From a virus, in the IMG/VR virus record IMGVR_UViG_3300015360_002635, positions 1 through 23,584 of that record: a stretch of 23,584 nt of DNA. One strand, given 5' to 3'. Both the position numbers and the translations under genes were made by a program. Positions 2-12,972 of the stretch are shown piece after piece. How positions within the stretch are numbered: position 1 is the stretch's first letter; every line of letters begins with the position of its first letter. The notes under the pieces are model-generated. The model saw nothing but the letters and a program-made list of their open reading frames with translations, was not told where the DNA came from and did not search any database.

Positions 2-112
2 AAATATGATACAGTATGGTCTGTAAAACAAGCAAAGGACCAACAAGTTTATGATTTTACTGTAGATCACAATGAACACAATTTTGTGGCAAATGGCGTA
101 GTCAGTATGAAT
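2..112 (+). other. C-terminal splicing region of an intein (blocks F and G)
   Basis: In frame with the portal, the last 37 residues before the conserved portal sequence do not belong to gp20. They match the intein C-terminal pattern: block F is VYDFTVDHNEHNFVANG (codons 47-97) and block G ends VVSMN, with the terminal Asn at 110-112 and Thr at 113-115 as the +1 nucleophile. The insertion point is directly before the most conserved portal motif, typical of inteins. The penultimate residue, usually His, is Met. Whether an endonuclease domain exists, or whether the intein is split, cannot be seen because the N-terminal part is upstream of the window. Confidence 0.88.
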
Positions 113-1144
113 ACAAGAGCACCAGAAAGACGTGTATTTTATATCGATGTGCAAAATCTTCCGCCTTATAAAGCCGAAGCTTTTATTGATAGAATGAAAG
201 ATCAGTTTAAAAAGAAAAAAGTTGCCAGTAATCGTGGTGGACCGGGAGCGTCTTCTGTCGAAGAAAGATGGCACGCACCGGCTGCGGATGAAGATTATTG
301 GATTCCAATTCGTGCCAATGCAAATACTCGTGTTGAAACATTGCCCGGTGCCCAGAATCTTGGAGAAATCGATGACACAGTTTATTTTAGGAATAAATTG
401 TTTACAGCATTAAATTTCCCAAAAAATTACTTCAACAATGAAGATGCTCAAAGCACAAGAATCGCTTTGTCTGCTCAAGATGTTAAATTTGCTCGTATGA
501 TTGAAAGATTGCAAAGTCATATCGAAGAAGCCTTATGGGAAATTTGTGATCGTCATTTAAAACTTCTTGGATATCCAGAAGAAGCATATGAAGATCTTGC
601 TATAAAAATGACAGCACCTAGTGATTGGAGAGAACTAACAAGAGCAGAAGTTCTTACCAATCGTCTTAGCAATGCCTCGAACTTAAAAGGGTCGCAACTA
701 ATGAGTGACTTTGACATCCTCACCAAGTTTTTAAAGTATCCAGAAGACGAAGTTACACAAATGCTGGCTAGACTTAAAATACAAAAATTGGACGATCTTA
801 AATTACAAATTATTGCTCAAAACCCAACATTATTAGGCGTTGGTTTGCCGGGTCCAGATGATACAGAAATAGGAACAGAACCGGGTGGACCAAATCCAAT
901 GCTTGGCCAAGATGCTGGAGGACAACCACCAGCACCGGGTGCTCCGCCAGCAGGAATGAAGAAATTCATGGATGATGGAGGCGAAGAAGATATGGAAATG
1001 CCATCTCAAGGCACTCCGCCAATGTCAGGATCAGGAAATCCTATTCCAACTCCAGATCAGGAAGATATTCAAAAATTCAATCTCGACATTCAAAATTTTG
1101 ATTCCGAAATTGACGAAGAAGAAATTGATTTTTCAGAAAACTAA
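2..1144 (+). CDS. 20: Portal protein (T4 gp20-like), C-terminal part, interrupted by an intein; 5' partial
   Basis: Portal vertex protein: a dodecameric ring at one capsid vertex through which DNA is packaged and ejected, and the initiator of prohead assembly. The reading frame is open from base 2. Codons 2-112 are the end of an intein (separate entry) and the portal resumes at Thr 113-115. The segment RAPERRVFYIDVQNLP right after the junction is the hallmark of the gp20 family. The 343-residue C-extein ends in a Gly/Pro-rich linker and an acidic tail (DSEIDEEEIDFSEN), as in T4-type portals. The N-terminal portal part and most of the intein lie outside the window. A GTG at base 86 is inside the intein and is not a start. 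Family call very sure; the frame crosses the junction without a stop. Confidence 0.95.
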   Translation, partial: KYDTVWSVKQAKDQQVYDFTVDHNEHNFVANGVVSMNTRAPERRVFYIDVQNLPPYKAEAFIDRMKDQFKKKKVASNRGGPGASSVEERWHAPAADEDYWIPIRANANTRVETLPGAQNLGEIDDTVYFRNKLFTALNFPKNYFNNEDAQSTRIALSAQDVKFARMIERLQSHIEEALWEICDRHLKLLGYPEEAYEDLAIKMTAPSDWRELTRAEVLTNRLSNASNLKGSQLMSDFDILTKFLKYPEDEVTQMLARLKIQKLDDLKLQIIAQNPTLLGVGLPGPDDTEIGTEPGGPNPMLGQDAGGQPPAPGAPPAGMKKFMDDGGEEDMEMPSQGTPPMSGSGNPIPTPDQEDIQKFNLDIQNFDSEIDEEEIDFSEN

Positions 1145-1185
1145 TAGATGAGTGGAAATCTCACAAAGATGATGAATCTAAAATA

Positions 1186-1323
1186 ATGAATTTTGCAACT
1201 AATGGATGCACGCAATTATACACAGAAAAATATAATGGTAAATCCGGAAATCATGCAACTGAGGTTTTTGATTGTACAGATTACACAGTTGTTTTAGATC
1301 GACTAAACAAATATTTTGAGTAA
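1186..1323 (+). CDS. Small hypothetical protein, 45 aa
   Basis: ATG at 1186 opens a 45-codon frame ending in TAA at 1321-1323, five bases before the ATG of the zinc-ribbon gene at 1328. The product has two Cys and ends in DYTVVLDRLNKYFE, a plausible helix. No recognisable domain. There is no convincing ribosome binding site before the ATG; in-frame sequence reaches back to 1129 without a standard start. It fills what would otherwise be a gap between the portal and the next gene, which is the main support. It could also be the remnant of a longer gene. Confidence 0.35.
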   Translation: MNFATNGCTQLYTEKYNGKSGNHATEVFDCTDYTVVLDRLNKYFE

Positions 1324-1327
1324 TAAC

Positions 1328-1585
1328 ATGAATGAAATATTGATAAAAGAAGCTCCGATTTATTCTATGAAAAATAAGAAATTGATAGATGAATCGGAGT
1401 CTTGCGGGTGTTATTCCTGTTTATCAGTTTTTTCAAAACTTGATATTACAGAATGGACAGACAATGGATTGACTGCACTCTGTCCTAAATGCAATGTTGA
1501 TTCTGTTTTGGCTCAAACATATGGAGTCCCACTTGATGAACAAAATTTAAAAATAGTTCACAATCATTGGTTGAAAAAATGCTGA
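1328..1585 (+). CDS. Small zinc-ribbon protein, 85 aa
   Basis: The product has two Cys pairs, CGCYSC in the first half and CPKC in the second, with EWTDNGLTALCPKC between and around them. This matches a family of small uncharacterised zinc-ribbon proteins found in bacteria and phages, in which a metal is probably held by C-x2-C plus C-x2-C. An in-frame TTG at 1316 exists, but ATG 1328 is the more natural start. The 3' end overlaps the next gene by seven bases (ATGCTGA), so the two are probably translationally coupled. Molecular function unknown; the zinc-ribbon assignment is fairly sure. Confidence 0.75.
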   Translation: MNEILIKEAPIYSMKNKKLIDESESCGCYSCLSVFSKLDITEWTDNGLTALCPKCNVDSVLAQTYGVPLDEQNLKIVHNHWLKKC

Positions 1586-2259
1586 AAATTCCCAAAAAAA
1601 CAATTAGTTTAATTGTTGCTGCTTATAGAGAAGATCTTTATTGGATTAATAAAATTTATCATCCAGTTATTGTATACAACAAAAATGACAAATCAGATCG
1701 TTCTGCAATTCCAAACAATACCACTGTGATTGAATTAGAAAATTATGGCAGAGAATCGCAAACATATTTGTATCATATAGTAAAAAATTATAATAAACTA
1801 TCTGATATCAACATTTTTTGTCAAGGAACACCATTTGATCATTGTCCTTATTTTATTGAAATAGCAAACAAAAATACGATCAAACAAATGAACGAATTAT
1901 CGTGTAAATATAAAAATAAATTGTGTAATGAATCTGACTATTTTTGTGGCATTGGAGATTATTCAGATTTCATAATTAAAGAATGTGTAAATTCAGAATG
2001 GGATCTTCAAAATAGAATTCCGTTCTGTTTCATTGGCATGGAAACAATGTTTCCAAGAGCAAAGCCAATTAAATTGTTTAAATCAATTTGGGGATCTATT
2101 TTTGCTGTGTCAAAAGAAAATATTCTTAGATTCAGAAAAGAACAATATCAAAAGTTATTAGACCTTCACGCTCAATTTTGGAGCTTTCCTTGGGCTATGG
2201 AAAACATTTGGCATCACATATTTGAAAAAGATGACGCACCAAAAGGAAAATTTATTTAA
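1579..2259 (+). CDS. DUF3431-like protein (possibly glycosyltransferase-like), 226 aa
   Basis: The N-terminal pattern SLIVAAYREDLYWI, then VIVYNK, then ENYGRESQTYLYHI and later IFCQGTPFDHC follow the order of conserved blocks in DUF3431 proteins (early R/Y-x-E-D-x-x-W, YNK, N-x-GRE-x-x-YL, QG-x-P-x-x-H). The biochemical role of the family is not established; a distant likeness to glycosyltransferases is only a suggestion. ATG 1579 overlaps the stop of the upstream zinc-ribbon gene in ATGCTGA, and is preferred over the TTG at 1567. The gene ends four bases from the convergent minus-strand gene at 2264. It is cargo in the head cluster, not a known head gene. Base composition is lower in GC than in the neighbouring structural genes, which fits acquisition. 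Confidence 0.75.
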   Translation: MLKIPKKTISLIVAAYREDLYWINKIYHPVIVYNKNDKSDRSAIPNNTTVIELENYGRESQTYLYHIVKNYNKLSDINIFCQGTPFDHCPYFIEIANKNTIKQMNELSCKYKNKLCNESDYFCGIGDYSDFIIKECVNSEWDLQNRIPFCFIGMETMFPRAKPIKLFKSIWGSIFAVSKENILRFRKEQYQKLLDLHAQFWSFPWAMENIWHHIFEKDDAPKGKFI

Positions 2260-2263
2260 CTTT

Positions 2264-2620
2264 TTAAGAATCTCCACCAAACTCATTATTATACCCTCCG
2301 TCAGCATTTGATGGCACGACTTCATGACCATCTGTTGGGTGTCGTGGCTCGCTAAATTGAGGCTTCTTTTCTCTTCTTAATTTACTAAGAATTGAAGACA
2401 CTTCTTCATCGCCTCTTTGAGCAATTCCATTGACAAATTGCATCATTTCATCTGGATATTTATTCATAATGGCTTTGAACAATTCTTTTTGAAGATGTTC
2501 ATGGTCTTGAGCAAAATCATTATCATCGCCATTAAGTTTAAAACCATCAACCGGTTCGCCTGAATCTCCTAGCCCTTCTTTTAGATTTTTTCGCCTCATC
2601 CACTCTTTAAACATCAACAT
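2264..2620 (-). CDS. Hypothetical protein with capsid-targeting-like N terminus, 118 aa
   Basis: A highly charged, probably disordered protein starting MLMFKEWMRRKNLKEG. The FKEW segment resembles the N-terminal motif of four other proteins in this window and the capsid-targeting sequence of T4 internal proteins (MKTYQEFIAE). NLKE-G also fits the L/I-x-E cleavage preference of T4-type gp21 proteases. I infer, without proof, a small head-core or internal protein. The start at 2620 has a good ribosome site (TAAGGAGC) and an AATAAATA late-promoter-like motif about 60 bases upstream at 2683-2690. It is convergent with the DUF3431 gene. No enzymatic domain recognised. Confidence 0.75.
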   Translation of the reverse strand: MLMFKEWMRRKNLKEGLGDSGEPVDGFKLNGDDNDFAQDHEHLQKELFKAIMNKYPDEMMQFVNGIAQRGDEEVSSILSKLRREKKPQFSEPRHPTDGHEVVPSNADGGYNNEFGGDS

Positions 2621-4598: not shown

Positions 4599-5291
4599 AT
4601 GGAACAAATGTTATTGGTCGATTGTTGCACGCACTCCGGCTTCGAACTCGCACTTCACGAAGGCACTACATCAGGTAAGGGTCTCGTGAAGTTTCGAGGT
4701 AAGTTCCAAGAAGCTGAGGCGATAAACAAAAATAAAAGAATGTATCCGTATGATGTTCTTGATGAAAATATGAGTCGTTTGCAGGAAGCTCTTTCTGATC
4801 GCAGACTTATCGGAGAATTAGACCATCCTACTGATAGTATTATTCACTTCGCTAACGCTTCTCACATAGTTACTAAACTGTGGTGGGAAGGCAATATCTT
4901 AATGGGCGAAGGAGAAATTCTTAATACACCTCACGGTAAAGTTCTAAAAGCTTTAATCGAAGATGGTGTGAAAGTTGGAATTAGCTCACGAGGAGTGGGC
5001 AACGGGAAAGTTAATGAAGACGGCATATTAGTCATTGGTGAAAGTTACAAACTTATTACCTTCGATGCTGTTGCTGATCCTAGCACTTTCTCAGCGTTCC
5101 AAGAAAAGGTAACAAGTAAGAAAGAAAATGTGATTCATTCTCGTGAAGAATCATATCGCAAAGAAGTTGCTAAAACAGTTAACAAAAATGAGACCAGCAG
5201 CATAGATACCGTTAACAAAGAAGCATTGATCGCTTGTTTAGGCGGCTTTGTGAAATCTCAAGCAGATAAAATTAAGTCGAGGTTAAATTAA
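4599..5291 (+). CDS. 21: Prohead core protease (T4 gp21-like)
   Basis: Serine protease that is assembled in the prohead core and cleaves scaffold, capsid and internal proteins during head maturation. The family signatures are present: GELDHP with the catalytic His at about residue 76, GISSRG with the catalytic Ser at 129 or 130, and the FDAVADPS block that follows in gp21 proteins. Length, 230 residues, is close to T4 gp21. The ribosome site AAAGGAGTG precedes ATG 4599. The stop overlaps the scaffold start by one base (TAATG), so the two are coupled. Its presence makes the capsid-targeting-like N termini of other proteins in this window meaningful. Confidence 0.93.
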   Translation: MEQMLLVDCCTHSGFELALHEGTTSGKGLVKFRGKFQEAEAINKNKRMYPYDVLDENMSRLQEALSDRRLIGELDHPTDSIIHFANASHIVTKLWWEGNILMGEGEILNTPHGKVLKALIEDGVKVGISSRGVGNGKVNEDGILVIGESYKLITFDAVADPSTFSAFQEKVTSKKENVIHSREESYRKEVAKTVNKNETSSIDTVNKEALIACLGGFVKSQADKIKSRLN

Positions 5292-6187
5292 TGGACAAGA
5301 TCACAGAAGCACTGAAGAAGATCCTCCCGGCTGAGCATGTGAACGAGGTTCGCAAAGCCGTAGAAGATATGATGGCTGAACAATATAAGGGACTTGAATC
5401 AGAATTTCAGAGCAAACTTGAAGAAGCTTACTCTCAAATCTCAGATGAAAAATCTCGAACAGAACTCGTAGCTGAACAAGGTTATCAACAAGCCTATGAA
5501 ATTATTGGATCATTGATGACTCGTATTGATGAACAACGTTCAGAATTCGAAACAGCTCTTGAAGAAGGTTTCGAAGAAGCCTACCAAGAACTACAAAGTG
5601 AAAAAGGAAAGAATGGCGGCATCGAAGTAGAACTCTACGAAGAGTTTGATAAGAAGCTGCATGAGATGAAGGAATTCATGGTCGAAAAAGTCGATCAGTT
5701 CCTTGGTCTCCAAGAAGAAGAAATTTACGAACATGCCAAGCGTGATGTTCTTAGCGATCCACGCATCGCTGAACATAGAGTTGTTGTCTCCAAGATGGCA
5801 GAAATGCTTTCAGATTATATTGATAATGACACTCTCGGTGGAGTCTCTTCTGCAAAGATTGAAGAAACACACAAACAATTGGAATCCATTAAAGGACAAC
5901 TCCGAATTGTTGAAGCTAAAAATGTCAGACTGTCGGCTCATAATAACAAGCTCAATGAGCAAGTTCGTGAAGCTAATGGCTTGCTGACAGAAGCAGCTAA
6001 AGTAGAAAGAAAAGAAAGAGCAAGCAAGGCAAAGAATGCAAGTGGGCGTGGTAATAGAGTTGGAGCCGATCAGATTCTGTCTGAATACGCTGCACCAACT
6101 TCGGAAGGCAAAGATCAGCACCTTATGGAAGGCTCTGATCCCCTAACCGATCTTCTGGTACTTTCTGGACTACAAGAGTCCAGATAA
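5291..6187 (+). CDS. 22: Prohead scaffold protein (T4 gp22-like)
   Basis: Main scaffold of the prohead core, around which the capsid protein assembles and which the protease later degrades. The product is 298 residues, acidic, Glu/Gln-rich and almost wholly predicted helix or coiled coil, as in gp22 (269 aa in T4). Sequence identity to known scaffolds is not obvious, so the call rests on position between protease and capsid genes, length and composition. The start overlaps the protease stop by one base. The C terminus ends in a short hydrophobic segment (LTDLLVLSGL) that in gp22-type scaffolds probably contacts the capsid protein. Confidence 0.85.
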   Translation: MDKITEALKKILPAEHVNEVRKAVEDMMAEQYKGLESEFQSKLEEAYSQISDEKSRTELVAEQGYQQAYEIIGSLMTRIDEQRSEFETALEEGFEEAYQELQSEKGKNGGIEVELYEEFDKKLHEMKEFMVEKVDQFLGLQEEEIYEHAKRDVLSDPRIAEHRVVVSKMAEMLSDYIDNDTLGGVSSAKIEETHKQLESIKGQLRIVEAKNVRLSAHNNKLNEQVREANGLLTEAAKVERKERASKAKNASGRGNRVGADQILSEYAAPTSEGKDQHLMEGSDPLTDLLVLSGLQESR

Positions 6188-6196
6188 TTCAACAAC

Positions 6197-6210
6197 AAGC
6201 TTTTTAGCTT
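6197..6210 (+). other. Small hairpin in the capsid-gene leader
   Basis: AAGCT-TTTT-AGCTT forms a five-pair stem with a four-base loop between the scaffold stop and the capsid ribosome site (GAGGGA at 6220-6225). It may set mRNA processing or translation of the very highly expressed capsid gene, but it is short and could be chance. Confidence 0.3.
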
Positions 6211-6228
6211 AATAAAAAGAGGGAAACA

Positions 6229-7680
6229 ATGTCTTTTAACTCACGCTATCTAAATGAAGCACGAGAAATTGAAGCCAGATGGTCAAAGCCTTTGAGAAAC
6301 GGTAAGTCTATGCTTGACGGCATTAGCAACCGCTATGAAAGAGCCACGGCCTCTGTACTTCTGGAAAATCAGAGACTTATGAACGAAGCTATGACCGATA
6401 CCGGTGATATCGCTCAGTTCAAGAGAATCTCAATTCCACTTGTTCGTCGTATTTATCCACAATTGATCGCAAACAAAGTTGTTAGCGTTCAGCCGCTGCT
6501 CGGCCCAACAGGTTTGGTTTACTACCTGAGATTCCGATATAGCAGCAACAAGGGTGCAATGAGAGGAGCCGACCTGAACAGCGGCTATCCATCTGATGAT
6601 GCAACATCGTTGCAACAGTTGGCCTCTGGTGATGGCAACCTTGATATCTTCTACACACACCAGTTCATCCAGAACGAAACATCTAGCACTGACGCTGGTG
6701 GAGACACCAACTCAATCTATGCTCCTCTGGAACACACTCCAGTTCTCGCCGGAACAATGACAGGTACTATCTATGATGGCTCTGTTGCCGTTCAGACTTT
6801 CGTCGTTGCAGAAAGCGGAACATTCACCTTCACAGATATTGGAACACCAGCCAACAAGGCTACTGGTGGTACTCTTGATCTTGTGACTGGAGAAATGACA
6901 CTGGCTTGGAATAATGATCCGGGTGCTAACCGTATTGTAACTTCTTACGAATACAACATGGAATGTAACCAAGATCTTCCAGAAGTTAACCTCGTTGTCG
7001 AATCGGAAGAAATTGCCGCTAAGACACGTAAGCTAAAGGCTGTTTGGTCATACGAAGCTCAACAAGATCTTCGATCACAACACAACCTTGATGCCGAAGC
7101 TGAACTCACAGCAGTTCTTGCTCAGGAAATTAACCTCGAAATCGATCGTGAAGTGTTGACAGACCTTCGTAACAACGCAGGTACTATCGCAGTGTGGGAC
7201 TTCAACACAGCACTAGGGGATACTATCAAAGAGAAGTACGAGTCTCTGTATGTTAAGGTTGTTGAAGTTTCTAACGTCGTTCATCGTAAGACCCTCCGTG
7301 GCGGATGTAACTGGCTTGTCACTTCTCCAGAAGTTGCTTCAGTGTTCGAAACTGCAACAGCAGGATTCGCACCGGCACCTTCAGAAACCTTCACAAGTAG
7401 CTTGGGTATTCAGTACGTAGGTACTGTTAATAATCGTTGGAGACTGTACAAAGATCCACTCTTCCCACAGGGCCAGATCCTGATGGGGTATAAGGGTGAC
7501 TCTTACATGGACAGCGGCTATTTTTATTGCCCTTATGTACCACTCACTCAGACCCCCGTAGTACTTGACCCAGAATCATTCTGTCCAAGAAAAGGAATTT
7601 TAACTCGATACGGAAAAAAGTTGCTGCGTGAGGGAGCTAAATTTTATGCTCGCATGTCAATCGCAAATTTCATCATCTGA
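6229..7680 (+). CDS. 23: Major capsid protein (T4 gp23-like)
   Basis: Forms the hexamers of the head shell. LVRRIYPQLIANKVVSVQPL followed by GPTGLVYYLRF is the gp23 family signature (T4: MVRRAIPNLIAFDICGVQPM). Length is 483 residues against 521 in T4. The N-terminal region has a likely maturation site near LENQRLMNE-A (about residues 45-54), where the gp21 protease would remove the leader. Between about residues 165 and 245 there is a beta-rich insert (HTPVLAGTMTGTIYDG to the EYNMECNQ region). The region VWSYEAQQDLRSQHNLDAEAEL is conserved in the family. Ribosome site GAGGGA precedes ATG 6229. A strong terminator follows the gene. Confidence 0.95.
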   Translation: MSFNSRYLNEAREIEARWSKPLRNGKSMLDGISNRYERATASVLLENQRLMNEAMTDTGDIAQFKRISIPLVRRIYPQLIANKVVSVQPLLGPTGLVYYLRFRYSSNKGAMRGADLNSGYPSDDATSLQQLASGDGNLDIFYTHQFIQNETSSTDAGGDTNSIYAPLEHTPVLAGTMTGTIYDGSVAVQTFVVAESGTFTFTDIGTPANKATGGTLDLVTGEMTLAWNNDPGANRIVTSYEYNMECNQDLPEVNLVVESEEIAAKTRKLKAVWSYEAQQDLRSQHNLDAEAELTAVLAQEINLEIDREVLTDLRNNAGTIAVWDFNTALGDTIKEKYESLYVKVVEVSNVVHRKTLRGGCNWLVTSPEVASVFETATAGFAPAPSETFTSSLGIQYVGTVNNRWRLYKDPLFPQGQILMGYKGDSYMDSGYFYCPYVPLTQTPVVLDPESFCPRKGILTRYGKKLLREGAKFYARMSIANFII

Positions 7681-7727
7681 TTTTGTCGGACGATAAATAA
7701 TCAGGCGTAAAGCCAAAAAGCTTAAAG

Positions 7728-7764
7728 AAAAAGCCCGGTCAGAAATGGCCGGGCTTTTTTATTT
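7728..7764. terminator. Strong rho-independent terminator, probably bidirectional
   Basis: AAAAAGCCCGG (7728-7738) pairs with CCGGGCTTTTTT (7749-7760) around a ten-base loop, followed by ATTT. A-rich and T-rich flanks on both sides allow it to stop the capsid transcript on the + strand and the convergent transcript of the nuclease gene ending at 7763 on the - strand. Confidence 0.9.
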
Positions 7765-8929
7765 AAAGAGACTTAACTAATGAGGATTCAAGTAAAGTTT
7801 CCAGATCAAGATTCAAAGATTTGACTTTGTCATTTGCCCATATTTCATAATCAAGAATCTTTTCACATTCTTCTTGAAATGATTTTTTCTTAAGCAAAGT
7901 AAGTTCTAATTTATTTGAATAGTCGTTCTTGACTTCAATGGCCAATGGTCTATCATTGTTGTGATACTTGACAACAAAATCAATTACATAATGTCTTTTA
8001 TGTCCAGTGACATCATAATATGCAACTCTAAACGGCTCATAGTCATACCATTCTACATCAGGATCATTATCTAAATGCCAATGAGTTTTTAACTCATAAC
8101 TAGAACGAAACATCGGATTCGTTCGTTTGCATTTCTTGCTTCGATAATGACCTTTAACACAATGCTTTGGTCCAGAGTTCCATTTGCCTTCGTCTATTAA
8201 CTGCATAACAGCCTCCCGTTGCTTCTGGTTCCATGCTTCTGGTCTTGGCACTCCTTTGTTTGGGCCTCCACTCTCCCAGCTTTCTTTCAACCACTCCCTG
8301 CAATTCTCACGCAAATAGTCTTTCATTTCAGGGAGTTGATTATAATGTTCAACTCCATAGTTCTCATACATGGTCCTAGCCATTTTTGCACGAACTTCAG
8401 GTAGCATTGCAACATTTGCAACGCCATACCTTTCCTGTACGGTTTTTTGCATTTTGGCTTTAATCTCTTCATTTTGAAGAGGAACATGGGTGCCATATCT
8501 TTCTGTAAGAACCGCCTGTTGTTTGGCTTTGATTTCTTCATTTTGCATTGGATGATCTGTGCCATATTTCTCTTGAGAAGTTTTCTTACGTTTATCTACG
8601 ATCTTCTGTGTGGCACTTTCTGTCCCAAACATTTTCTCGACTCTGGCGGCAGTATTCTCTTCAGTATTTAACACACAAGAGGTGCCGTACCGTTCGATGC
8701 ACGTTTTCTCCATCTTTGCACGAACCTCTGGCTTTGAGGCTGGATTGTCCGCAGACATCGAGCATTTTTTGCAGATGTGCTTACCTTTGTTTTTCTTAAA
8801 GTTCTTGTCTGCATCTTTGAACTTTAATGTCCAAAGTTTGCTGCACCGCTCAAAACCACCATTACAGTCATAACGAATGACAACATGTGTTGTGGTTTTA
8901 ACATTATCAGGTATTTCTTCTGTAAACAT
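7763..8929 (-). CDS. Putative homing endonuclease: zinc finger, YG repeats, TnsA-like PD-(D/E)XK nuclease
   Basis: 388 residues in three parts. An N-terminal Cys-rich module has C22, C29, C53 and C56. Residues about 70-205 hold about six repeats with a conserved [FY]-G and a Q-N-E-E-I-K-A-K spacer (YG/FG at 81, 101, 122, 145, 169, 191), a repeat type typical of phage free-standing homing nucleases and probably DNA-binding. The C-terminal part reads FRSSYE (E279), YVIDF (D317) and IEVK (E332, K334), the order of catalytic residues in TnsA-like PD-(D/E)XK endonucleases. The ATG has a strong ribosome site (GAAAGGAAGCC) and a sigma70-like promoter upstream. It is opposite in direction to the capsid gene it abuts. 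Mobility is inferred from family and position. Confidence 0.8.
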   Translation of the reverse strand: MFTEEIPDNVKTTTHVVIRYDCNGGFERCSKLWTLKFKDADKNFKKNKGKHICKKCSMSADNPASKPEVRAKMEKTCIERYGTSCVLNTEENTAARVEKMFGTESATQKIVDKRKKTSQEKYGTDHPMQNEEIKAKQQAVLTERYGTHVPLQNEEIKAKMQKTVQERYGVANVAMLPEVRAKMARTMYENYGVEHYNQLPEMKDYLRENCREWLKESWESGGPNKGVPRPEAWNQKQREAVMQLIDEGKWNSGPKHCVKGHYRSKKCKRTNPMFRSSYELKTHWHLDNDPDVEWYDYEPFRVAYYDVTGHKRHYVIDFVVKYHNNDRPLAIEVKNDYSNKLELTLLKKKSFQEECEKILDYEIWANDKVKSLNLDLETLLESSLVKSL

Positions 8930-8992
8930 GGCTTCCTTTCAGGGATTATTTAATGTCTGTAAAAACTTCACTATCAATTTCGAAGTTGATTT

Positions 8993-9021
8993 ATTATAGC
9001 ACTCAATTGATATTCTTGCAA
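8993..9021 (-). promoter_or_regulatory. Sigma70-like promoter for the minus-strand nuclease
   Basis: On the minus strand TTGCAA (9016-9021) is followed after exactly 17 bases by a perfect TATAAT (8993-8998). The start would fall about 60 bases before the ATG at 8929. It looks like a promoter for host RNA polymerase, so early or middle expression is likely, unlike the late-type motifs elsewhere in the window. Confidence 0.7.
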
Positions 9022-9087
9022 AAATCTTTTTTTATTTTTTCAATTAAGAAGAAAAAATCAATCTTTCACATACTGTTATATGGTATC

Positions 9088-11325
9088 ATGATTAAGCGAT
9101 ACTTAAGAAGCAAGTCTCAAAGAACAGATTTGTTTTTTTCTACAGACGGCTTGTGCTCAATCTGTAAAACCCCATTGCCTGTAAGTTGGCACTCTGATCA
9201 CATAATTCCTTGGAATGGAAATGGATCTACAATAATGTCAAATTTACAACCAACATGTCCAAAATGCAATCAAGAGAAAGGCGACAAAATGCCAAACAAA
9301 ATCAATTACGAAAATTTGAATTACTTTCAAGAAGATTTCCCAGACAACAATGGAGTGAGAATATGTCAGATTGGAGCTTACAATGCTGCAATTCATAAAT
9401 TGGCCATAGGGCCACAAGGCGGTATGACCTCTATGAGTTGCAGCATATTCCTTCCAACAGGAACCGGCAAATCGGATGTTGTTCGAGCACTTTCAATTGG
9501 ATTAAAGAAGAGAGGCCGATGTAGCGGAGTTTGGGTCTTTAGTCCGAGTGAAGGATTAAGACAGCAAATCGCTAAAGATGAAATCAAGGAGTGCTTGGCA
9601 AGACTTGGAGTTTCCTTTCCACGATATTTTCCTTTTAGCGAGGAAACATGCTTGGACAATGAAAGATTTAGAAATGAGTCCATCATGGAATCATATACCA
9701 CCCAATTCTTGATTAACGGCGGATCAAAAAAAACCAACTTAGATCATTTCATTGAACACGATGCTAGAATCTTTAGTAAAACAGGAAAACATGTTGTCAG
9801 TGTATTTGATGAAAGTCATTTGTTTAGCACAGATAACACATGGGGTGATGCAGCAATTAAACTACAAGAGGCTGGCATTCCAATCATTTTAATTACTGGA
9901 ACACCATACAGAACAGATAAGATAAAAATCCCCGGATTTGAACAAGAATTCATAGACGAAGTAGAAAAACTATTCGTCAAAACAACGGTCAGCGACGAAG
10001 TAGTCAAAATCAAACGTGGTAAAGAAAAAATAACTCGGTGGAAGTTGATAGCCGATTATGAATACACATATAGTCGTGCATGGGAAGATGGGGTTATATT
10101 AAGACCATATCCACAATGGATCGATGCAACTGACATTACCTACAACAAAATTCTTTCTGAGATGCCTAAAGGAGAATCATCTAAATTATTGAGGAAATTT
10201 TTACTAGATGATAAAACAATAAGTTCCGCAGTAACTGCTACGATTGAATCTATATGTCGCAGAAAAACAAGTGACAATAATTGTTGTGCCATTGTTACAA
10301 CATTATCTGACTCTGATGACATTGATTCTATTGACACAGTTTATGATGACGACATGTTAGGTAATTTACATGCCAGAAAAATTGAACGAGAATTCCGTAG
10401 GCAAAATCCAAACCTAAGAGTCAGAATTGTGACCTCTTCTCTGAACTCTAATGATTTGAACAAATTCAAAGAGGGGCAATATGATGTGCTTATTGTTAAA
10501 GCAATGGGCACAATCGGATTCAATCATAAACCGATCAAAACTGTTTGTCATCTTTCTAGCTATAGAACCCTACCGGCTTTGATTCAACTTTTGATGCGTG
10601 GATGCAGAGTCTATGGATCTCACAGAACTTTTGATGCTATCCTGACAAAAGACAAAGCATTACGTGATTTGTGGATGCAACTTGAAGAAGAAACTGGCTT
10701 GGTAATCGAAAACAAAGAAGAAATTGAATCTAGCGTCGAAACCAAGCCGATCAAAGAATCAGACGACGAAGAAAGAAAACCATCTGTATTTGACAATCAC
10801 AACTATTCTTATGAAGTTAATAAGAACAGAAATCACAGTGATGAGATCATTGAACTATACGGAAAAAAAGATCCTCAATTAGCGAACGTTTTGAAACCAC
10901 AAGAATTGCTAAATCATTTTGCTTTGATGTCAAAAACACTCGGAGACAATTGGCTCAACAACATGCCTGATTATCAAATTCCAGAGCCAACGATTGCAAT
11001 GCTCGATCCCAACGAAGAAGAGCATCGTAGAAGAACAGAGTCCAAAGAATCTGTACAAGAATTAGCCAATGAAATAATGCTGATGTGCAATGTGGCATAT
11101 TCCAAGGCAACATTCGGGAAATATATCGCTCCCGTATGGAAGTGTGTGAAAAGAATTAGTGGATTCCCTCCAGCGGCTTCTATGGAAAACATATCTGGCA
11201 TAGAAAACTATGGCAAAATAATTGAAGCGTGCATATATGTGAAATCAAGACTCAGTACAGAAAATGAAAGTGATTACTTTGATCATTTTGAATGGTTAGC
11301 AAACATCAGGTCTATGAGACGATAA
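9088..11325 (+). CDS. HNH endonuclease fused to an SF2 (DEAD/DEAH-type) helicase
   Basis: 745 residues from ATG 9088. Residues 20-65 are an HNH domain: C23-x2-C26, H35-S-D37-H38-I-I-P, N52-L-Q and C57-P-K-C60-N. Then a full SF2 helicase core: Walker A PTGTGKS (123-129), Walker B DESH (241-244), motif III TGTPYRTD (270-277), motif V around VKAMGTIGFNH (470-480) and motif VI QLLMRGCR (500-507). The remaining ~230 residues are unrecognised, with a Glu-rich linker first. Expected activity is ATP-driven translocation on nucleic acid coupled to cutting. An upstream in-frame ATG at 8953 would add 45 Lys/Phe/Ile-rich residues overlying the divergent promoter, so 9088 is preferred though its ribosome site is weak. 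Role unknown: defence, counter-defence or mobility are all possible. Confidence 0.85.
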   Translation: MIKRYLRSKSQRTDLFFSTDGLCSICKTPLPVSWHSDHIIPWNGNGSTIMSNLQPTCPKCNQEKGDKMPNKINYENLNYFQEDFPDNNGVRICQIGAYNAAIHKLAIGPQGGMTSMSCSIFLPTGTGKSDVVRALSIGLKKRGRCSGVWVFSPSEGLRQQIAKDEIKECLARLGVSFPRYFPFSEETCLDNERFRNESIMESYTTQFLINGGSKKTNLDHFIEHDARIFSKTGKHVVSVFDESHLFSTDNTWGDAAIKLQEAGIPIILITGTPYRTDKIKIPGFEQEFIDEVEKLFVKTTVSDEVVKIKRGKEKITRWKLIADYEYTYSRAWEDGVILRPYPQWIDATDITYNKILSEMPKGESSKLLRKFLLDDKTISSAVTATIESICRRKTSDNNCCAIVTTLSDSDDIDSIDTVYDDDMLGNLHARKIEREFRRQNPNLRVRIVTSSLNSNDLNKFKEGQYDVLIVKAMGTIGFNHKPIKTVCHLSSYRTLPALIQLLMRGCRVYGSHRTFDAILTKDKALRDLWMQLEEETGLVIENKEEIESSVETKPIKESDDEERKPSVFDNHNYSYEVNKNRNHSDEIIELYGKKDPQLANVLKPQELLNHFALMSKTLGDNWLNNMPDYQIPEPTIAMLDPNEEEHRRRTESKESVQELANEIMLMCNVAYSKATFGKYIAPVWKCVKRISGFPPAASMENISGIENYGKIIEACIYVKSRLSTENESDYFDHFEWLANIRSMRR

Positions 11326-11329
11326 CACA

Positions 11330-11353
11330 GAAAAAGCCAGATCTGGCTTTTTC
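11330..11353. terminator. Rho-independent terminator, perfect 12-bp inverted repeat
   Basis: GAAAAAGCCAGA followed directly by its exact complement TCTGGCTTTTTC, starting five bases after the helicase stop. The centre forms the loop. The T-rich right arm terminates the helicase transcript; the A-rich left arm would serve the opposite strand. Confidence 0.85.
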
Positions 11354-11410
11354 ATTAGTTCTTTCTATAATTTGATCTGTTTTCAGACATAAGTTATTAA
11401 ATCACTTAGA

Positions 11411-11532: not shown

Positions 11533-12972
11533 ATGATATTAGAAAAAGAAACATTTGAAAAACTTGGCAAACAGTTTGAAGAAGCTTCTAAGAAAGCAAA
11601 GATTGTTTGTCAGTGTGATTATTGTGGCAATGTTTTCGATAGACTCAAAAACAATATTTTAAGATCATGGCAACATATAAAATCAGACAGTTGTAGTGAT
11701 AAAAAATGTATACAAAAGAAACGAGTAAAAACCAATAAATTGGTATTTGGCACTGACAATGCTTTCCAAAATAAAGAAATAAAAGATAAGATAGCCAAGA
11801 CTAATCTGGAAGCCTTCGGCGTTGAAAATCCTATGCAAAATGCTCGTATTAAAGAAAAACAAAATAAAACATGTCGGGAGCGTTATGGAACTGATAATGT
11901 TTTTCAAAACTCTGATATTAAAGACAAAATAAAGAAAATTATACAAGACAAGTACGGTGTATCAAATCCAACTCAGAACAAGGATATTAAAAACAAACAA
12001 GAACAAACGCTAATGTCAATTTACGGAGTGTCACATGCTCTACAAGATCCAGAGTTAAGAAAAAAAGCAATGGATACTTGTGTTGCAAATTTTGGAAAAT
12101 TCCCAGCCAATAATTATGGAAAAACACAAAAGAGCATTGAAGAATGGTTAAACTCTTTTGGATTCAATTTCAGTTCGACAAGGAAATTAATACCCGGTTT
12201 TGAAATTGACATTTATGATGATGATCGAAAATTAGGAATAGAGTATTGTGGTTTACACTGGCACCATGAATTTTCATCTGCATCACGAAACAATAAATAT
12301 CATCATAACAAATACAAAAAATGTTTAGAACAAGGCGTTCAACTTTTAACCATATTCTCAGATGAATGGGAGAAAAGAGAATTGCAATGTAAAGGACATA
12401 TAAAATCAATTTTAGGAATCAATGACACACGACTTTATGCAAGAAAATGTATTGTTGAAGAAATTGACAAAGAAGTTGGGAGAAGGTTTTTTAGCGATTA
12501 TCACATTCAAGGAAAGAATAATCTTGGAGTTGTTTTCTTTGGTTTATTTCATGATTCAGAGCTTATTGGAGTCATGTCTCTTGGTCGTCACAATCGTCAA
12601 GTCAATGCTCTTGTGTTAGACAGACTTTGCTTCAAACATGGATTTCAGATTACTGGTGGTGCAAGCAAGTTGTTTTCAAAATGTGTCTCTTGGGCAAAAG
12701 ACAGAGGTCATACAGAAATAATCAGTTTTAGCGACAATCGCTGGAGTCTTGGCAAAGTTTACCTTGCATTAAACTTTGAAATGGTCAAGGATTACAATCC
12801 AGACTACAGTTATGTTGACATTAAGAAACCTAATGAACGCATCAGCAAGCAAAGTCAAAAGAAAGGCGTTGTGAATTGTCCAGAAGGCATGACAGAATAT
12901 GATTGGGCACATGCAAGAGGATTGGCAAGAATTTGGGATTGTGGCAAGAAGCGTTGGTTGTTTAATATATGA
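11533..12972 (+). CDS. Hef-like homing endonuclease: zinc finger, YG repeats, Vsr-like nuclease, C-terminal Mom/GNAT-like domain
   Basis: 479 residues. N-terminal Cys cluster: C26, C28, C31, C54, C59. Residues 70-190 hold about five YG/FG repeats with Q-N-x-x-I-K-x-K spacers. Residues 195-295 match the Vsr-like (EDxHD-type) nucleases of phages: SIEEW, FEIDIY (D226), GIEYCG (E237), LHWHHE (H242, H244, H245), YHHNKYKKC and LLTIFSDEWE. Residues 300-479 are the domain often fused to these nucleases (LYARKCIV, GGASKLF, SFSDNRWSLGKVY), with a likely acetyltransferase-like fold. Own promoter and strong ribosome site; two terminators upstream. It shares its N-terminal half layout, but not the nuclease, with the gene at 7763-8929. 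GC is low compared with the head genes, fitting a mobile gene. Confidence 0.85.
   Translation: MILEKETFEKLGKQFEEASKKAKIVCQCDYCGNVFDRLKNNILRSWQHIKSDSCSDKKCIQKKRVKTNKLVFGTDNAFQNKEIKDKIAKTNLEAFGVENPMQNARIKEKQNKTCRERYGTDNVFQNSDIKDKIKKIIQDKYGVSNPTQNKDIKNKQEQTLMSIYGVSHALQDPELRKKAMDTCVANFGKFPANNYGKTQKSIEEWLNSFGFNFSSTRKLIPGFEIDIYDDDRKLGIEYCGLHWHHEFSSASRNNKYHHNKYKKCLEQGVQLLTIFSDEWEKRELQCKGHIKSILGINDTRLYARKCIVEEIDKEVGRRFFSDYHIQGKNNLGVVFFGLFHDSELIGVMSLGRHNRQVNALVLDRLCFKHGFQITGGASKLFSKCVSWAKDRGHTEIISFSDNRWSLGKVYLALNFEMVKDYNPDYSYVDIKKPNERISKQSQKKGVVNCPEGMTEYDWAHARGLARIWDCGKKRWLFNI

What the first reader, a model, noticed from the sequence alone, without database searches (positions are those of the whole stretch)
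2..1144. Intein in the portal gene of a T4-type phage
The 37 residues in frame before RAPERRVFYIDV have the block F/G layout of intein C termini, and the Asn-Thr junction falls exactly where the most conserved portal motif starts. Inteins are well known in phage DNA-metabolism and terminase genes; a portal host is less usual. The intein, two putative homing nucleases and an HNH-helicase fusion all lie within 13 kb of the conserved head genes.
Basis: partly seen in the sequence, partly recalled or inferred. Interest (0 to 1): 0.7.

Follow-up and report, generated by a model that had tools for sequence, protein, structure and literature searches.

The report
Intein in a phage portal gene
The window opens on the tail end of an intein, a protein segment that cuts itself out, sitting in the gene for the DNA gateway of a large T4-like phage; close relatives with and without it show a mobile element that repeatedly enters this gene.

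Summary
Confirmed. Window 2-112 encodes the last 37 residues of an intein and 113-1144 the C-extein of a T4-like portal (gp20). The 5' half lies off the contig, but 17 of 61 distinct related portals carry an intein at exactly this site (YRL|[T/S]RAPERR) and 44 lack it. Complete same-site inteins are 395-430 aa Hint + LAGLIDADG proteins (one decayed to 262 aa) starting with Cys. The window's nearest relative (93-94% nt) has an empty site, whereas a phage only 79-82% identical shares the window's first 123 nt exactly, intein end included. Occupied and empty alleles 98-99% identical exist: a sporadic homing element. All relatives readable upstream also hold a second, nuclease-less ~230-aa intein at a wing-domain site, inherited with the portal and under purifying selection. 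More distant gp20 genes carry inteins at other sites, so gp20 is an intein hotspot here. Portal inteins are known from cluster C1 mycobacteriophages; I found no report for T4-like gp20 in the papers searched. Splicing and homing are inferred. In the window itself the N-terminal intein half, the endonuclease and the second intein are predicted, not seen.

The parts
2..112 (+). C-terminal 37 residues of an intein (blocks F and G: VYDFTVDHNEHNF, NGVVSMN); the contig starts inside the intein
   Evidence: Pfam Intein_splicing positions 120-155, E 1.6e-5; aligns with the C-termini of full-length inteins at the same site
110..115 (+). C-terminal splice junction Asn|Thr (intein Asn, +1 extein Thr); corresponds to T4 gp20 I276|T277
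   Evidence: Frame; T4 numbering from GNMP = N291-M292 (PMC4493910) through KPN6 portal T275
113..1144 (+). C-extein of the gp20-type portal: end of stem helix, clip, second wing part, crown, long acidic tail
   Evidence: Portal_T4 E 4e-51; PHROG 213 portal, E 7.6e-49; 3ja7 alignment of relative L003
1..123 (+). Stretch identical to the start of contig IMGVR_UViG_3300015360_000770 (L002/L082); 123 is the largest k in a published JGI MEGAHIT setting, so this looks like an assembly-graph branch
4599..7680 (+). Conserved head genes downstream: prohead protease (4599-5291), probable scaffold by position (5291-6187), major capsid (6229-7680)
   Evidence: PHROG 207 and 138; the 5291-6187 protein has no PHROG match and is named by its place only
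7677..11381 (.). 3.7-kb block with a DUF7487/TnsA-like protein (7763-8929, -) and an HNH + helicase-like protein (8953-11325, +), absent from the 94%-identical relative L003; independent of the intein
   Evidence: blastn window vs L003, junction sequences, Pfam/PHROG

Best explanation
Window 2-1144 is the 3' end of a gp20 portal gene interrupted in frame by a mobile intein at the bond T4 I276|T277, where the stem helix meets the clip. After translation the Hint domain should excise the intein (Cys1, the TxxH of block B and the terminal Asn are seen in full-length relatives) and join VVYRL to TRAPERR, restoring the portal. Its LAGLIDADG endonuclease, present in most relatives, should cut intein-free portal genes at this conserved sequence so that repair copies the intein in (homing). 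The window's intein was probably acquired recently, since its nearest relative is empty while a more distant phage, probably from the same sample, has an identical intein end. Shown: the sequence anatomy, exact insertions, presence/absence pattern and predicted folds. Inferred: splicing, DNA cutting, homing, and the content of the window's unseen N-terminal half.
For: Pfam Intein_splicing on the 37-mer. Full-length inteins at the same bond. Profile hits to solved inteins: Spl DnaX 3.9e-18, NpuDnaB 2.3e-14, TliVMA, PI-PkoII, PI-SceI. AF2 model of relative L036, pLDDT 93.7, best Foldseek hits endonuclease-bearing TliVMA (1.2e-19), PI-PkoII and PI-SceI. Window vs empty L003 93-94% nt. Window vs L002 79-82% nt but identical over the 112 readable intein nt; at 79% identity this has probability about 1e-11 if positions are independent. 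14 state changes on the extein tree, at least 9 forced by well-supported branches, and no clustering beyond chance. L031 occupied vs L062 empty: 98-99% nt around a 1251-nt insert. Decayed 262-aa version L018, as the homing cycle predicts.
Against: The 5' half is outside the contig and could not be recovered. Penultimate His is Met; inteins without it can splice (my knowledge), but activity is untested. No splicing or cutting data. Site-2 intein and extein distances still correlate (Mantel r 0.50), so part of the history is vertical.
Confidence: 0.93

Rival explanations
1. A split (trans-splicing) intein: the window carries only the short C-intein plus C-extein as its own gene, and the N-extein/N-intein is encoded elsewhere, as in phage gp41-1 and NrdJ-1.
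For: The readable intein part is 37 aa, about the length of natural C-inteins (my knowledge); no start codon or upstream sequence is visible.
Against: Every same-site relative readable upstream of the junction is one continuous ORF with no break at this point. The contig start is better explained by an assembly branch, because exactly 123 nt are shared with L002 and 123 is the largest MEGAHIT k. No portal N-extein elsewhere in the window.
Confidence: 0.04
2. An assembly chimera: an intein fragment from another genome was joined to an intein-free portal gene.
For: Contig start lies at a probable graph branch; two contigs share the same start.
Against: The fragment is in frame and joined at the exact bond used in all other occupied portals. 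Two divergent exteins (79% nt) are each joined to it; a false join would have to occur precisely twice.
Confidence: 0.02
3. An old, vertically inherited, decaying intein rather than an actively homing one.
For: One same-site member (L018) has lost its nuclease; the site-2 tree partly follows the extein (Mantel r 0.50).
Against: Presence is not clustered on the tree; identical intein ends in phages 79-82% identical; dN well below dS in the LAGLIDADG part where dS could be computed (dN 0.20-0.24, dS 1.0-1.2, two pairs).
Confidence: 0.08

Closest known systems
Portal-protein (PORT) inteins of cluster C1 mycobacteriophages (Kelley et al. 2016, PMC5050341)
   Same: Intein in a phage portal gene
   Different: No mycobacteriophage was among the tblastn hits of the same-site intein
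Bifunctional Hint-LAGLIDADG inteins (TliVMA, PI-PkoII, PI-SceI)
   Same: Fold of the full-length same-site relatives and splice-block layout
   Different: Host gene, insertion site; low sequence identity (13-18% in the structural alignments)
Multiple inteins in phage packaging genes, e.g. TerL of cyanophage Mic1 with a large and a small intein (PMC7156551)
   Same: One nuclease-bearing and one small intein in one packaging gene
   Different: TerL instead of portal; single phage instead of a clade-wide fixed plus mobile pair
Intein- and intron-rich Jug and crAss-like phages (PMC12363816, PMC7886860)
   Same: Large phages with late genes interrupted by inteins; Jug portal genes reported as fragmented and/or divergent
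   Different: gp20 intein sites are not described in the passages read; crAss-like phages are a different lineage

Membership tests
Intein (Hint, class 1) | C-terminal blocks F and G ending in Asn followed by Cys/Ser/Thr | tested here: met
   Window 2-115; Pfam E 1.6e-5. Penultimate His replaced by Met
Intein (Hint, class 1) | N-terminal nucleophile Cys/Ser and block B TxxH | tested here: inconclusive
   Outside the contig in the window; met in same-site relatives (CLxGDT..., TxTHP)
Intein (Hint, class 1) | In-frame insertion in a host protein that is complete without it | tested here: met
   Empty-site relatives incl. L003 (93-94% nt) and 44 of 61 distinct portals
Intein (Hint, class 1) | Self-excision with ligation of exteins | not testable with these tools
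   Needs expression
LAGLIDADG homing element | LAGLIDADG domain within the intein | tested here: inconclusive
   Not visible in the window; present in most same-site relatives, decayed in L018
LAGLIDADG homing element | Sporadic distribution with identical copies in divergent genomes | tested here: met
   14 changes on tree; window/L002 identity over the readable 112 intein nt
T4-like portal gp20 (host gene) | Portal_T4 profile and gp20-gp21-gp22-gp23 gene order | tested here: met
   PF07230 E 4e-51, PHROG 213/207/138; gp22 assigned by position only
Natural split intein | N and C halves in separate genes | tested here: inconclusive
   No relative is split; upstream DNA of the window is missing

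The most novel reading that the evidence does not exclude
The second, fixed intein in this portal (site 1, ADEA|C...HN|C, about 230 aa, no nuclease, a helix-turn-helix-like insert) is no longer a parasite but a retained part of portal maturation. Splicing, possibly conditional on DNA or another signal sensed by the insert, would set when functional portal becomes available and head assembly starts. The mobile site-2 intein then adds a second splicing step to the same protein.
Probability: 0.2. Interest if true: 0.75.

Novelty: new member of a known kind. Interest (0 to 1): 0.5.

Why it matters
gp20 is widely used as a T4-type marker gene, and in this clade it is interrupted by one fixed and often one mobile intein, so annotation, phylogenies and structural models of these phages' portals will be wrong unless inteins are removed. 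Natural occupied/empty pairs at 98-99% DNA identity, and an identical intein end in two phages that are 79-82% identical, give a clean system for measuring intein homing among uncultured phages. A nuclease-less intein found in every readable member of the clade, with its insert under purifying selection, is a good test case for the open question whether some inteins are useful to their hosts.

Tried and rejected
Mycobacteriophage C1 portal for site comparison: records not in the collection. Host: the genome-contig scan gave one clade member (L168, 53% identical, on a 77-kb contig in a Neisseriaceae MAG) with both inteins; a phage contig in a MAG is weak host evidence. Literature searches for gp20/portal inteins in T4-like or huge phages found none (two searches were rejected as malformed). 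An early portal HMM was discarded as an intein-free reference when its positions 99-335 proved to be the fixed site-1 intein. Considered and rejected: chance match, natural portal insert, chimera. Split intein kept as a low rival.

Full report
OBSERVATION. The window is a whole IMG/VR contig of 23,584 bases, so nothing upstream of base 1 can be read. ORF 2-1144 is open at its 5' end. Its first 37 residues match the C-terminal end of the Pfam intein splicing domain (E 1.6e-5 for the 37-mer alone) and the rest is a T4-type portal (Portal_T4, E 4e-51). The junction is Asn|Thr, directly before RAPERRVFYIDV.

SAME SITE IN RELATIVES. A scan of viral contigs with the ORF gave 80 loci. Most read ...EDAMVVYRL-TRAPERRVFYID... 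without interruption; the others carry an intein between L and T/S. Among 61 distinct C-exteins, 17 are occupied and 44 empty; one of the 44, L127, is a divergent portal. Complete same-site inteins are 395-430 aa in the clade, start with Cys, hold the TxxH of block B and LAGLIDADG motifs, and end HN|T or HN|S (AN in L107). One (L018) is 262 aa with the nuclease motifs lost. A profile of 26 inteins from this and neighbouring portal sites hits solved inteins (Spl DnaX 3.9e-18; also TliVMA, PI-PkoII, PI-SceI). The AlphaFold model of L036 (pLDDT 93.7) matches endonuclease-bearing TliVMA best (1.2e-19). The full ORF of each readable relative is continuous, which argues against a split intein.

MOBILITY. 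The window is 93-94% identical in DNA to L003, an empty-site phage, over the portal C-extein and 5.4 kb including the head genes, but only 79-82% identical to L002/L082, which is occupied. Yet window and L002 are identical over the 112 readable intein nucleotides plus 11 of extein, 123 in all, and both contigs begin at the same base. The largest k-mer in a published JGI MEGAHIT setting is 123 (PMC6646334), so both contigs most likely start at a graph branch where two co-occurring genomes share intein sequence and then diverge; that they come from one assembly is my inference. On the extein tree the occupied/empty state needs 14 changes, at least 9 forced by well-supported branches, and is no more clustered than shuffled labels (mean 15). 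L031 (occupied) and L062 (empty) are 98-99% identical on both sides of a clean 1251-nt insertion. This is the pattern of a homing intein with frequent gain and loss.

WHERE IT SITS. By the T4 portal structure (PMC4493910: stem 255-278 and 359-377, clip 279-358; N291, M292 at the clip tip) and alignment, the bond is I276|T277, the end of stem helix alpha-5 just before the clip that binds the packaging motor. An unspliced intein there should block portal function (inference).

A SECOND INTEIN. Empty-site portals are still about 850 aa against 524 for T4 because all of them carry another intein near T4 residue 100 in the wing domain: ADEA|C...VYDLSVEKH.NF...HN|C. It is in every clade portal long enough to show it, 59 of 59 distinct full sequences, including L168; LR756511, a 595-kb uncultured phage, has it too. 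It is 228-235 aa, has no recognisable nuclease (43 of 43 members match Intein_splicing, with weak HTH hits in some), models at pLDDT 96.3 and matches mini-inteins such as NpuDnaE and DnaB. Its distances follow the extein (Mantel r 0.84) more closely than those of the site-2 intein (0.50). Median dN/dS is 0.07 in the insert and 0.08 in the splicing part against 0.03 in the extein, on pairs where dS could be estimated; many dS values are near saturation. So the insert is not decaying. The window's portal is predicted to have it; it lies off the contig.

HOTSPOT. Mapped on an intein-free gp20 profile, more distant portals have inteins at other places: YGK|, SYLHK|, RQL|, RIVR|, LPGA|, IPK| and EGK|; LR756508 (484 kb) has three in one portal ORF, and L106 and L114 at least three inserts each. 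Several of these bonds were read by eye. Cultured T4-like references (P-SSM4, KPN6, SynMITS9220M01, immuto) have none.

KNOWN AND NEW. Portal inteins are described for six cluster C1 mycobacteriophages (PMC5050341), and multiple inteins in a packaging gene for TerL of Mic1 (PMC7156551). The papers I could search held no report of inteins in T4-like gp20; subscription papers and most preprints are outside that library. The window's intein is a new member of a known kind; the fixed plus mobile pair in one portal and the multi-site hotspot are the more interesting part. The proportion of occupied portals comes from loci found by similarity to an intein-bearing query and to an intein alignment, so it overstates how common the intein is.

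Noticed in passing
L003:6804-7499 and equivalents in 58 other distinct portals: A fixed ~230-aa nuclease-less intein with an HTH-like insert at a second site of the portal, inherited with the portal and under purifying selection.
   Followed up: yes
L083:2825-6985 (LR756508); L114, L106, L097, L141: Portal ORFs of 1300-2060 aa with two or more inteins at different sites.
   Followed up: partly
window 7677-11381: 3.7-kb block (DUF7487/TnsA-like gene and HNH-helicase-like gene) inserted cleanly between the gp23 stop and its terminator; absent from the 94%-identical L003.
   Followed up: partly
window 1130-2270: Region between portal and the next conserved gene has no blastn match to L003 or L082 although both flanks do: a variable spot.
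   Followed up: no
window 11533-12972: Homing-endonuclease-like protein (PHROG 3339, E 1e-89) with DUF7487 and a GNAT/Mom-like domain.
   Followed up: no
L079:1-2112: A portal of this group with an intein bearing an HNH-like motif at LPGA|C...CN|S, in the channel-loop region.
   Followed up: no
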